Assembly (NCBI GenBank): GCA_019828545.1 | Contig: JACVRA010000070.1 | Location: 1 to 64,000 of the forward strand | DNA: 64,000 nucleotides | Source: Paracamarosporium sp. OC-R06-R3 | Lineage: Eukaryota; Ascomycota; Dothideomycetes; Pleosporales; Didymosphaeriaceae | Direction of reading: 5' to 3' | In this document: in pieces, positions 673-5,401 of the stretch | How positions within the stretch are numbered: the stretch's first letter is position 1 | How the letters are laid out: each line of letters starts with the position of its first letter | Notes under the pieces: generated by a model | Seen by the model: the letters and a program-made list of their open reading frames with translations, nothing else | What the model was told of the DNA's origin: nothing | The model's database searches: none | Translations under genes and position numbers: made by a program

Positions 673-3020
673 ATGGCCTCAATAAGACTGTACCACGGTA
701 CACGCGCTGCCCGCAGAGGCACTGTGTAAGTGACGGGTGACGAACCGAGACCGAGACCGAGACTGACGCTATCGCCACCAGCTGCAAGCAATGCCGACGC
801 TCCAAAGTCAGATGCTCGGGCGGGCGGCCATGCGAGCGCTGTCTTCGTCGCCGCGATACGTGCGCCTACGCCGCCGACGATGCCCACGTCTCTGTGCCCG
901 AGCATTACATGCGCGAGCTGCTACGGCGCGCCGACGAACGCTCGCTCTCGGCCCCGACCCCGACCGCATCGAACAGCATCAACACCAACACCATCCCCGC
1001 TCCGACAAATGCCCGTTCTAGCGACATCACGGCCGTCAGCGTGGGACCCTCGGAGCATGGAGCGGCCGTGGGTGAAATGACTTATGTCACGTCACCTGAC
1101 GGCTGTAGGCTTTGTACCTCCACCGACCGACCGAGCGTAGTCTTTCTCTAATCACCTGCAGTGTATCTGGGCCATACTTCGACGTGGTCCTTCTGTCGTC
1201 GGGCCCTTGCCTTGCTGGACGCGACTACAAATGTTGCCCCCGCCCCATTGAACCTCGATGGAACCGCCTTCCAACTGCAATGGGAGCCCAAGTCTAGCAT
1301 CGAAGCCTCTGACTTGGCCAAGCTCCCTCCGGCCGATCAAGCCCTGTATCTGTACAACGCCGTTAAATTCCATCTTGGCGAGCTGGCTGCTATTGTAGAT
1401 GAGCAGCATTTCCTTTCCATCTTTGACCAGTTCCACAAAAGTCCTCTCGCAACTGCCCAGAAGCATCGCCTATGGTTCGTGCAATACTTACTGTTGCTTG
1501 CCTTTGGCAAGGCATATACTTCATTTCCGACCCAACCCGCCCTTGTCCCCGCTGGATCTGAACTCGCTGCGCGTGCTCTGTCCATACTCCCGAATGTCGC
1601 TTTTTTACAGGAAGAGCGTCCTTCGATGCTTGCCATCGAGGTACACTCTTTGAGCGCATTATACTTGCAATCCATCGACATGCGCTCGGCCGCATACCAA
1701 TATGTCAGAGTCCTACGTACTGCCAGAAGAACAGCGACACAATAGACTAACAACGAATCTAGATTGGACAGGCAGTCCGCTTGTGTCTTCACGACGGAAT
1801 GCACAGACGTGTATCGGATCAACTAGTCGATGCTCGATTTTCGACTCGCTGTGGCGAGCTTTGGTGGACAGTCTATATCCTTGACCAAGAATTCACAGCA
1901 TCTTTAGGCTTACCACCAAACGTATCGCTGAGCTGCGTGACGACATCATACCCCGACGTGAAAGCAGATACATCGTCAGCAAAGGCTCTCGCATTGCGCG
2001 CACGTTTGTCACGGCTGGTTTCCGACCTGTGTGGAAGTGAGTACCCTCTTGCGATTTGTCTCTCCCTCCACGCTTACGCAGGGTGCACTTAGAGAATTAT
2101 AGTCTCGATGCAGACGCCAACTCGGACTTTGTTCGCAATACCGTAGCGAATTTGCATGACCTGGCCGGCATCTCACGCGATTTGGATGAGGTCACATCAG
2201 TCTTCAGAGCCAACCAAGTTGAGCTACCAACCATATTTTGCAGTATTGCGCTATTGTACCACCATGTGAGTTGCCATATCTGACACGAAATCATGTCTGT
2301 TTCCCATGAGTTAACTGACAAGACCGTAACATTAGTGTATTGTGTTAGCTACTCGACCGCTTGTTCTTGCACTTCTCAGTCGCAACTTTTCCACGATCAC
2401 GGTTATGTTAGACGACGCGGGTCCTGTAGCGAGCCTTGTCAAGAAGTCTGTACAATCTGCTTCAAACACTGTGATGCTTCTTGCTAACATGGTTGAGCGG
2501 GAAATACTTGGTAAGTAATTGAAGCATTACCAGATCTCTTCTCATGGCCAGCTGTTGACGGATGCACACAGAGACCTTCCTCCCCGCTCAGTTGGAATAT
2601 GAATTTTCTTCTGTCTTGTTGCTGCAGAGATTTCTGCCCCTGAGTGCGCGCAGGACAAAAATGCACTATCAAATCTTTCGAAACAAGAATGCAAAGCAAG
2701 AGCATTTCGACAAAATCAATATCCTGTACAAACAGGTCATGAATGAAGACAAGGGACTTGCGTGTGGTGTCCAGAAGAACATGGAACGCGGACAGTTCGT
2801 GAATGGACAGATGCACCCGCACATTGAGAGTCCAGTCATACATCAGCAGGCAAAGACTCGTGAAGCTGTGATGGAGCATGCAGCGGTAGAGAAAGCCGCC
2901 GGTCGTCAGGTGTGGCCTGCATCTCAAGCGCCAAACTCGGACGTAGTGAGCAAAGAGGATGAGGATTTCTGTGCACGCCTCTCGTGCGGCCCAGGCCAGC
3001 AGAATGTTCTAGCATGGTAA
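673..3020 (+). CDS. Chimeric gene: Zn2Cys6 regulator N-part fused in frame to Rieske oxygenase C-part
   Basis: Exons 673-725, 782-1071, 1162-1703, 1763-2036, 2093-2265, 2336-2510, 2572-3020 give 651 residues. Residues 1-517 are a fungal transcription factor. The Zn2Cys6 cluster (C19, C22, C29, C35, C38, C45) crosses the first intron. A fungal-specific regulatory domain follows, with typical stretches YQYIGQAVRLCLHDGMHRR and HHCIVLATRPLVLALL. After FLPAQLEYEFSSV (about 2615) the protein changes family. Residues 518-651 (LLLQRFLPLSARR.., then NEDKGLACGVQKNM and GQMHP) are the C-terminal part of a Rieske oxygenase catalytic domain, not a regulator tail. The missing regulator tail lies on the opposite strand at 5015-5401. 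All splice sites are GT-AG and the frame is open across the junction. The regulator is probably impaired. The DNA-binding part could still be made. Confidence 0.82.
2616..3020 (+). other. Displaced C-terminal part of a Rieske oxygenase
   Basis: 134 codons corresponding to the end of a ring-hydroxylating/choline-monooxygenase-like Rieske oxygenase. Features are QRFLPLSARRTKMHYQ, FRNKN, then VMNEDKGLACGVQKNM, the usual site of the acidic third ligand of the mononuclear iron, and finally a GQMHPHIES stretch. It is exactly the portion missing from the Rieske N-terminal part encoded on the minus strand at 5402-6300. Together they would make about 412 residues, a normal family length. Confidence 0.82.
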
Positions 3021-3669
3021 TGGAGCGATATCGAAGATGTATCTAGTCTCATAAATAGAGCTTACATTACTAGCATCAATGATCTTATTCCACGTCTGAA
3101 ACCTCGCGAATATATTGATTCACTCTAAAAATAGCCTAAATCTACCAAACGCCAACAACTTAGTATAGACATCAATAAAGAATTTGATGGTTGTGAAGAC
3201 ACACTGTCTAATCTGGAGAAAGAGGAGATGAAGTCTGTTACCTACCTCAACGTGCGAAACACTGCTATAAGGAGTAGGTGACCTAAAGACCGGCAGACTT
3301 TATGAGGTTTTGTCCGTGGCTATGACGCTTACAGGACGATGGCCGTTTTAAAGAAAGCCTTAGCTCGAGGCTCTGGTTAAAAGGCTGGGCGAGAGTCATC
3401 ATGACAATAGTAACATAGCTATTAGCGGAGAGCTTCTTGACCGAGCTTCTAGACCTGTTATTCTCTCGTGCTAATTGGGCAGGATAGTAGAATCAGAGTA
3501 ATGTCAATCTTTAGCTAACTCCTAGAGTCTGTGTGCAGGGTTTCTGTTGCCAGTGCTTGGATAATCAAAATTCGCTTCCAAAATGCTTCTATCCCGTTGG
3601 TTGATGTCGAAGAGGTAGAGTAACCTCGTTTAACAGCGTTCAATGTGGGAGAAGTTGTGATGTCTTAGG
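3021..3669. other. Non-coding, AT-rich, contains repeat copy 1
   Basis: No supportable gene. The stretch 3238-3410 resembles 9000-9150 and looks like a decayed dispersed repeat. Confidence 0.6.
3238..3410 (+). repeat. Degenerate dispersed repeat, copy 1
   Basis: Bases 3238-3273 match 9000-9035 at roughly 80 percent, mostly with transition differences. Further matches follow in the same order: a tatgacgct..gtttt..aa block near 3330-3360 versus 9070-9100, and a ggc..gag/aaagtca block near 3390 versus 9120. The pattern suits an old transposable element scarred by transition mutation such as RIP. Confidence 0.5.
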
Positions 3670-4596
3670 TTAGTGAATCCATCCGCCATCGACGTTATAA
3701 ACTGCCCCGGTTACAAAACTAGAGTCATCGCCAAGGAGAAACGCAATGACCTTCGCCACTTCAGTGGCCGAGCCAATTCTCCTCTGAGCATTGGCCATGA
3801 TGCCAGATTCCACACGTTTGGGATCATGATCCGCAGACATTGGCGTCAACACGGTTCCTATCAACGAATGAGCACAGCTGGCTGTAGATACTTTGGCAAG
3901 ATTGCCAGCAGAGGAACCCCAAGCTTACCTGGTGCTACACAATTGATACGTATGTGTTGGTTTTCCTTTGCAGCACTTTTACTTAGGGATATCACAGCTG
4001 CCTTGCTGGCAGAGTAAAGCGACGCCTTGGGCATGGCGATCTGCCCGAATGTGCTTGCCGCCGAGACCTACGTACACCGTCAGAAATCAACGTCATGTCT
4101 GCACTCTCATCTGGCAAGGACTTACAATACTACCGCCTGCCTTCATGGACTTGAGTTGGGCCCGAATGCAGTTGAACACACCGTCAACGTTCACAGAAAA
4201 CACAGCATTCAGCTGATCCTTTGTACAATCGACGATAGGCGCCGAAGGACCAAGAACGCCTGCCATGTTCACAGCACCATCAAGTCTATTGTATCTCGAG
4301 ACTGTGTTTTCGATCCATGCATCAACGGATGTAGGGTCTCGAACGTCGATCTTGGTGACCATATGTGTCGCGGCACCGCCTTTCAGTGACTCTAGAGCAG
4401 CATTGAGTGCGCTCTCATTGATATCAGCCATCGATAGTATGGCACCACGAGACGCAAGGAATTGTGCGGTTGCGAGGCCCATGCCACTAGCCGCGCCGGT
4501 GATAGCTATCTGTCCAACCAAAAAGCCCAAGTTAGCGAAATTGGCCTCAACGACTCGCACGGCTATGCTTACCACCTTACCCTCATATGTAGACAT
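3670..4596 (-). CDS. Short-chain dehydrogenase/reductase
   Basis: Exons in coding order are 4596-4573, 4509-4126, 4067-3929 and 3857-3670, giving 244 residues, a normal classical SDR. Motifs are the cofactor glycine motif TGAASGMG near residue 12, an NMAG variant of NNAG, the catalytic Ser region GGSIVSAAS, the YSASK catalytic Tyr/Lys, a VAPG turn and the C-terminal end TGAVYNVDGGWIH. It should oxidise or reduce an alcohol/ketone with NAD(P)(H); the substrate is unknown. It lies wholly inside the inverted segment and appears undamaged, so it would originally have been on the plus strand between the regulator and the Rieske gene. A role with the neighbouring oxygenases in one catabolic or secondary-metabolite pathway is an inference from context. 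Confidence 0.88.
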
Positions 4597-5014
4597 GACT
4601 GTTTACTCTGATGCTGTGCTGTCTGGGTCTCGGTACCTCTTGATTGGCTGAACCTGGGTCGGCTGGTCGTGGGCTGATGCCACGTCGTAAGAGTATGAGA
4701 GAATATATGCAAAATGACTGGTTACTGCAGCTAAGTATCATCATGGTTTCTCATCTGAGTTTCCCGAAACAGACGATGCTGCTAGCGTCGCTCGCCGAGC
4801 CGACAGCGCCACATTTCGGCGAAATCCCGCACGTCGCCTTATTCCACAGTGTGTCGATTTTGCTTTAGGATTACCGGATACGGTTCGTTTCAGTCACACA
4901 TGCCTTGCTCGTGGATAGACATGACTGTACCGCAACGTTTCCGATGTCAAAGCGATCTGGGGTAGCATATTCGCTGCCTACACCTGTAAGAACAATATCG
5001 GAACATGCCAGCAA
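4597..5014. other. Intergenic, no feature seen
   Basis: Separates the SDR start from the 3' end of the chimeric Rieske gene. The short frames present show no family features. Confidence 0.5.
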
Positions 5015-5401
5015 TCAAATGACTTCATTTGGAAAAATTTCGTAAGGAAATTGTTCGTGTTCAAATTGTAAGGCCAGCGCCGAGATATCATCTCCGTCCA
5101 TGGCGAACGGTTCGAAGGCATCAAAAGCCTCTCGCATTGTAAGGTCGAGCCCATTTGAACTATCCGCTCCACTCTCACGTTCGTTTGGAGGCATTGCATG
5201 CAAGTTTGTCTCTGGCTGCGTTGGAGAGTTCGTTCGTCGATGCAGGGCCAGCTGCTGCTCAAGACGCTCCCACTCAGCGCGCCGCAACGCAACGACGACG
5301 TTACCCTTTCTCGTCAGTTCGTCGAAAACTGTTCTGACTGCTTGGCGCCAGTTGTTGTCTGAAATAAACGCAGGCAAGATGTGATCTAGAATGGAAAGCA
5401 T
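5015..5401 (-). other. Displaced C-terminal part of the Zn2Cys6 regulator
   Basis: 128 codons with the pattern normally closing a fungal-specific regulator domain: a hydrophobic helix MLSILDHILPAFI, then NNWRQAV, TVFDELTRKGNVVVALRR and an acidic tail. It supplies exactly what is missing after residue 517 of the plus-strand chimera that starts at 673. Confidence 0.75.

What the first reader, a model, noticed from the sequence alone, without database searches (positions are those of the whole stretch)
2616..5401. Intragenic inversion has swapped the C-termini of a Zn2Cys6 regulator and a Rieske oxygenase, leaving two in-frame chimeric genes
Seen: the plus-strand gene starting at 673 is a fungal regulator up to 2615, then becomes the end of a Rieske oxygenase. 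The minus-strand gene starting at 6300 is a Rieske oxygenase down to 5402, then becomes the end of a fungal regulator. Flipping 2616-5401 makes both parents whole (about 645 and 412 residues). Both junctions fall between codons, so both chimeras are open, spliced and 651 and 406 residues long. Known: fungal regulators and Rieske oxygenases are not normally fused this way, and the Rieske iron triad needs an acidic residue from the C-terminal part. Inference: a single inversion disabled or rewired both genes. It may be fixed, polymorphic or, less likely, reversible. If the breakpoints fell at random phases, both chimeras would stay open about one time in three, so frame retention alone does not prove selection.
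Basis: partly seen in the sequence, partly recalled or inferred. Interest (0 to 1): 0.9.

Follow-up and report, generated by a model that had tools for sequence, protein, structure and literature searches.

The report
Small inversion swapped two genes' tails
In this fungal genome a 2.8-kilobase piece of DNA appears to have flipped, so that a gene regulator and an enzyme have exchanged their back ends while both genes still read through; it is a clear snapshot of an ordinary kind of rearrangement that has probably disabled both proteins.

Summary
The finding is confirmed. The plus-strand gene at 673-3020 is a Zn2Cys6 regulator up to about 2620, then the last 132 residues of a Rieske oxygenase. 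The minus-strand gene at 6300-5015 is that oxygenase down to about 5400, then the last 127 residues of the regulator. Four pieces searched separately against the 220 homologues listed pair the normal way in 77 and 59 proteins; 0 of 220 has either fusion. One Fusarium gene model runs regulator N, regulator C, SDR; in the window its last two parts lie inverted together, as one inversion predicts. Breakpoints are refined to 2619/2620-2624/2625 and 5395/5396-5400/5401, sharing at most 4 nt (TGCT), with no flanking inverted repeat. Two-break end joining fits; site-specific switching does not. The oxygenase's iron ligands are divided between the two products, and both breakpoints fall inside secondary-structure elements of intact relatives, so both chimeras are probably defective. 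The displaced pieces show no excess divergence, so the event looks recent. Fixed, polymorphic or assembly error cannot be settled without reads; the absence of repeats makes assembly error unlikely.

The parts
673..3020 (+). Chimeric gene 1 (chimTF): exons 673-725, 782-1071, 1162-1703, 1763-2036, 2093-2265, 2336-2510, 2572-3020; 651 aa
   Evidence: model; Zn_clus 17-47, Fungal_trans 192-367; Ring_hydroxyl_A C-terminal half 518-601, 18.4 bits, below its cut-off of 24.9
673..2621 (+). Regulator N-terminal piece (519 aa): Zn2Cys6 cluster and most of the Fungal_trans region
2622..3020 (+). Displaced Rieske oxygenase C-terminal piece (132 aa), with the candidate Asp iron ligand (residue 562 of chimTF)
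2620..5400 (.). Inverted segment (outer bounds; left breakpoint 2619/2620-2624/2625, right 5395/5396-5400/5401), carrying Rieske C-term, an SDR gene and regulator C-term
2620..2623 (+). TGCT at the left joint; the same 4 nt are on the minus strand at 5400-5397 (at most 4 nt of microhomology)
3670..4596 (-). Short-chain dehydrogenase gene inside the inverted segment; no stop in its matched segments; full splice model not built
   Evidence: 64, 74 and 85% to the SDR part of P0140 in three segments; adh_short; start codon
5015..6300 (-). Chimeric gene 2 (chimRO): exons 6300-5480 and 5414-5015; 406 aa
   Evidence: model; Rieske 50-137, Ring_hydroxyl_A N-terminal half 190-239
5399..6300 (-). Rieske oxygenase N-terminal piece (279 aa) with the Rieske cluster and both candidate His iron ligands (H217, H222)
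5015..5398 (-). Displaced regulator C-terminal piece (127 aa) ending in an acidic tail

Best explanation
A recent 2.8-kb inversion in a fungus near the Didymosphaeriaceae (Pleosporales) arose from two double-strand breaks, one in the last exon of a Zn2Cys6 regulator gene and one in the second exon of a convergently oriented Rieske oxygenase gene, with an SDR gene between them. The ends were rejoined the wrong way round with little or no sequence loss and at most 4 nt of shared sequence, as end joining or microhomology-mediated joining would do. Because the two breaks have the same codon phase, both chimeras stay open. Shown: architecture, colinearity, exact abutment in most homologues, absence of repeats, divided Pfam domain. 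Inferred: the break and repair steps; that the Rieske product is inactive (two His on one protein, Asp on the other); that the regulator, having lost its last helices and acidic, probably activating, tail, is inactive or dominant-negative; that the SDR stays functional.
For: Separate-piece searches: TF_N+TF_C in 77 and RO_N+RO_C in 59 of the 220 listed homologues, fusions in 0. PF00848 is divided: profile 3-75 on the minus chimera, 117-205 on the plus one, the latter below cut-off. P0140 (Fusarium decemcellulare) maps along one protein to 774-2639 (+, regulator N), then 5404-5054 (-, regulator C), then 4512-3673 (-, SDR). Other Rieske loci in the genome keep N and C pieces in order, 6 of 6. 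Longest inverted match within 300 nt of the joints is 8 nt, shuffles average 8.9. The own-genome search with 2400-5700 finds no second arrangement; both joint sequences occur once. The breakpoints fall in strand 277-287 of the P0003 model and helix 535-554 of the P0126 model. Window C/N branch ratio ranks 22 of 23 (Rieske) and 17 of 25 (regulator).
Against: No reads, second isolate or RNA were available. The 4-nt microhomology can also be zero, since the wobble base could lie on either side (chance of at least 4 nt by luck 0.016, if all 4 are ancestral). The window Rieske has Cys where 120 of 120 listed homologues have Tyr, next to the Rieske His, and each regulator piece differs at one site invariant in the 24 relatives used. 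These could be early decay or could predate the inversion. The regulator branch of the window is long in both pieces (0.76 and 1.02), so the rate test is weak there. No orthologue from the same species or genus was seen, so the age is not dated.
Confidence: 0.85

Rival explanations
1. Assembly or library artefact: the segment was placed in the wrong orientation, and the real genome carries two normal genes.
For: Draft assembly of 337 contigs; the locus lies within 7 kb of a contig end that is a dispersed repeat. No reads were seen.
Against: Misorientation in an assembly normally needs inverted repeats at both ends (general knowledge); the longest inverted match within 300 nt of the joints is 8 nt. 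A chimeric read would have to outvote all others. Both joint sequences occur once in the genome and no alternative copy was found.
Confidence: 0.1
2. Selected novel fusions: both chimeric proteins are kept because they do something new.
For: Both frames open, introns GT-AG, no excess divergence in the displaced pieces.
Against: Frame retention has a one-in-three chance. Iron ligands divided. Breaks inside secondary-structure elements. 0 of 220 listed homologues share the fusions. A recent event predicts the same intactness.
Confidence: 0.03
3. Reversible switch: a site-specific recombinase flips the segment.
For: The outcome is two alternative in-frame configurations (inference).
Against: No inverted repeat at the ends beyond 4 nt (one search showed 25 of 80 inverted pairs, none joining the two breakpoints); no second arrangement in the assembly.
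Confidence: 0.02

Closest known systems
Structural-variant gene fusions in Saccharomyces cerevisiae (PMC10412453, passages read)
   Same: Both breakpoints of one rearrangement lie in different coding sequences and can create chimeric genes; 145 putative cases reported there.
   Different: [quoted passage not shown] Here both reciprocal products of one inversion are in frame, with the breakpoints placed to within about 5 nt.
Intrachromosomal inversions behind mesosynteny in Dothideomycetes (PMC3516569 and PMC3219968, passages read)
   Same: Same fungal class; inversions are proposed as the main cause of gene-order shuffling.
   Different: PMC3516569 links breakpoints to simple repeats within 500 bp. 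Here one weak 15-bp array (5504-5518, score 30) is all that lies within 500 bp, and both breaks are inside exons.
Chimeric genes at breakpoints in Saccharomyces pastorianus (PMC3958482, passages read)
   Same: Genic breakpoints giving chimeric genes.
   Different: Those arise by recombination between the homologous genes of two parental species; here the two genes are unrelated.
Carnitine monooxygenase CntA (PDB 6y8j)
   Same: Best-scoring solved relative of the oxygenase.
   Different: CntA carries all its iron ligands on one chain (recalled); here they are divided between two proteins.

Membership tests
CntA-type Rieske oxygenase (minus-strand chimera) | Rieske [2Fe-2S] domain | tested here: met
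   PF00355, E 2.7e-15; CxxH motif present, but Tyr to Cys beside the His
CntA-type Rieske oxygenase (minus-strand chimera) | Complete catalytic domain with two His and one Asp on one chain | tested here: not met
   H217 and H222 are on chimRO; the aligned Asp is residue 562 of chimTF. Which residues bind iron in CntA is recalled.
Zn2Cys6 fungal regulator (plus-strand chimera) | Zn2Cys6 cluster and Fungal_trans domain | tested here: met
   PF00172 31.4 bits, PF04082 44.4 bits
Zn2Cys6 fungal regulator (plus-strand chimera) | C-terminal region of its own relatives | tested here: not met
   It lies on the minus-strand gene
Gene-fusing inversion (structural variant) | Both ends of one inverted segment lie in two different coding sequences, with both parents known as separate proteins elsewhere | tested here: met
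Gene-fusing inversion (structural variant) | Joints present in the DNA of the isolate | not testable with these tools
   No reads held
Programmed invertible switch | Inverted repeats at both ends | tested here: not met
   Nothing beyond 4 nt at the joints; longest inverted match 8 nt within 300 nt

The most novel reading that the evidence does not exclude
The swap has built a natural two-hybrid pair: one protein has the DNA-binding domain plus half an enzyme, the other has the complementary half of the enzyme plus the regulator's acidic tail. If the two enzyme halves (and the two regulator halves) still find each other, the complex would rebuild both the iron site and the activator and couple enzyme assembly to transcription.
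Probability: 0.03. Interest if true: 0.9.

Novelty: new variant of a known kind. Interest (0 to 1): 0.5.

Why it matters
Gene-order shuffling by inversion is thought to dominate genome evolution in Dothideomycetes (PMC3516569), but inversions whose two breakpoints can be placed to within a few bases are useful; how rare they are was not surveyed here. This one suggests that a 2.8-kb inversion can arise without flanking repeats, inside two exons, and leave two open reciprocal chimeras, which gene callers would report as new domain architectures. It gives a concrete, cheap genotyping target for fixation, polymorphism and decay after a double gene break.

Tried and rejected
Inverted repeats as the cause: none found (one search showed 25 of 80 inverted pairs). 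Mobile element at the joints: the 681 bp at 3000-3680 hit only two other places, over about 77 bp. A second intact copy of either gene in the assembly: only paralogues, at most 56% identical per segment for the Rieske; for the regulator part 33-37% in the best segments and up to 43% in short Zn-cluster stretches. The Rieske C piece alone against solved structures gave no meaningful match; the family profile was needed. dN/dS was not run: no DNA of a close relative was available. Literature: (inversion breakpoint, chimeric gene, fungal, reciprocal) found 0 papers; (intragenic inversion, fungi) found 1, unrelated by its listing; some searches listed 15 of 790, 12 of 26 and 15 of 42, from which I read passages of one, two and one papers; one search listed 15 of 146, none of which describes this cluster by title or abstract start; one search listed 4, not opened. 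Absence from print is not shown.
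Full report
What is there. The window is the first 64 kb of contig C298 (257,546 bases) of a 43.1-Mb, 337-contig draft fungal genome. Its Vps54 gene is 89% identical to Bimuria novae-zelandiae and 88% to Paraphaeosphaeria sporulosa and a Kalmusia. 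The first two belong to the Didymosphaeriaceae, Pleosporales, so the organism is probably in or near that family; the species is not identified. The plus-strand gene at 673-3020 splices with six GT-AG introns into 651 residues; the minus-strand gene at 6300-5015 splices with one intron into 406 residues. These are models, without RNA evidence.

Pfam gives Zn_clus and Fungal_trans on the first, Rieske and Ring_hydroxyl_A on the second. The Ring_hydroxyl_A profile is divided: positions 3-75 of 208 on the minus-strand product, 117-205 on the plus-strand product (18.4 bits, below Pfam's cut-off of 24.9).

Testing the swap without undoing it. I cut the two products at the joints into four pieces and searched each apart against all 220 homologues that two searches listed: the best 120 of 790 and all 104, overlapping. 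Regulator N and C pieces occur together in 77 proteins, Rieske N and C pieces in 59. Another 23 match only regulator N and 61 only Rieske N; those 61 are all 330 residues or shorter, and 57 of them end at residue 274, the position of the intron in this gene, so they look like single exons. None of the 220 combines a regulator piece with a Rieske piece at E 0.001; at E 10 three weak overlaps appear, at E 3.9 to 9.1. Where both pieces are found, they abut to the residue in 56 of 59 Rieske and 51 of 77 regulator homologues.

An independent relative. A Fusarium decemcellulare gene model, P0140, fuses the regulator with a neighbouring SDR. Along that single protein the window matches run 774-2639 plus, then 5404-5054 minus (regulator C), then 4512-3673 minus (SDR). 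Regulator tail and SDR have therefore flipped together, as one inversion predicts. The fusion in P0140 may itself be an annotation merger; it serves here as evidence of gene order.

In the same genome, the six other Rieske loci that the search listed carry N and C pieces side by side in order on one strand. Of three regulator relatives fetched, C67 keeps N and C abutting, C306 has a weak C match in order (E 0.004), and C241 has no detectable C piece.

Breakpoints. Homologues put the joint after residue 519 of the plus product and after residue 279 of the minus product. With the DNA this gives 2619/2620 to 2624/2625 and 5395/5396 to 5400/5401. Both joints carry TGCT, so up to 4 nt may have been shared; the chance of at least 4 by luck is 0.016, but the true number may be zero because a wobble base can belong to either side. 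The longest inverted match within 300 nt of the joints is 8 nt, against a shuffle mean of 8.9. Both joint sequences occur once in the genome with up to 3 mismatches allowed, and no second arrangement of 2400-5700 was found.

Consequences. By alignment of 14 relatives to carnitine monooxygenase, the two candidate His iron ligands (H217, H222) stay on the minus-strand product, while the aligned Asp is residue 562 of the plus-strand product. Which residues are ligands in CntA is recalled, not from a call. In an AlphaFold model of the relative P0003 (mean pLDDT 70.6, pTM 0.73) the breakpoint falls inside strand 277-287, and the Asp lies in helix 305-334 beyond it. In a model of the regulator relative P0126 (mean pLDDT 75.7, pTM 0.74) the breakpoint falls in helix 535-554; two further helices and a C-terminal helix at 640-652 lie beyond it. 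The regulator tail in the window is acidic (net charge -10 in the last 45 residues), and a tail motif was matched in 7 of 9 relatives checked; calling it an activation domain is inference. I therefore expect an inactive oxygenase and an inactive or dominant-negative regulator. The SDR shows no stop in its matched segments.

Age and selection. On trees of 22 Rieske and 24 regulator relatives hand-picked from the 220, with the C-piece tree held to the N-piece topology, the displaced pieces are not unusually diverged: the window's C/N branch ratio ranks 22 of 23 and 17 of 25. The regulator branch is long in both pieces, so that test is weak. The models hold no stops or frameshifts. On the other side, the window Rieske has Cys where 120 of 120 listed homologues have Tyr beside the Rieske His, one loss among 63 invariant N-piece sites; 20 of 20 C-piece sites are kept. 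The regulator keeps 60 of 61 and 10 of 11. A recent event with little time for decay is the simplest reading; in-frame retention has a one-in-three chance and is no evidence of selection.

Against known kinds. Rearrangements whose two breakpoints lie in two genes are known in yeast (145 putative cases, PMC10412453, passages). Inversions are proposed to drive mesosynteny in Dothideomycetes, with simple repeats near breakpoints (PMC3516569, passages). This case is the same kind of event, but without flanking inverted repeats, very small and doubly in frame. It is not a programmed switch by the test used: the defining inverted repeats were not found.

What remains open. Without reads or other isolates I cannot say whether the inversion is fixed, polymorphic or an error of the assembly; the lack of repeats makes the last unlikely.

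Noticed in passing
1-108: Dispersed repeat with 17-nt units (47-94) that recurs at or near the ends of several other contigs (for example C139, C202, C326, C57, C245) and also inside others (27 matches including itself); it probably explains the contig break. The exact telomere pattern was found on C278, C299 and C312 only.
   Followed up: partly
5959-5961 (minus strand): Cys codon next to the Rieske His where 120 of 120 listed homologues have Tyr.
   Followed up: partly
7374-8900 (+): Second regulator (Zn_clus, Fungal_trans_2). In two Septoria linicola gene models (P0011, P0013) a homologue of its C-terminal part is fused behind the Rieske oxygenase: either an annotation merger or another rearrangement of the same cluster.
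   Followed up: partly
1-501 (-), 9260-10636 (-): Truncated flavin-binding (FMO-like) gene at the contig start and a cytochrome P450 beyond; with the regulators, SDR and Rieske this looks like a small catabolic or secondary-metabolism cluster of patchy distribution (Elsinoe, Aspergillus, Penicillium, Fusarium relatives).
   Followed up: no
3207-3284: About 77 bp with 78-79% identity to two other places (C19, C50), inside the inverted segment; identity unknown.
   Followed up: no
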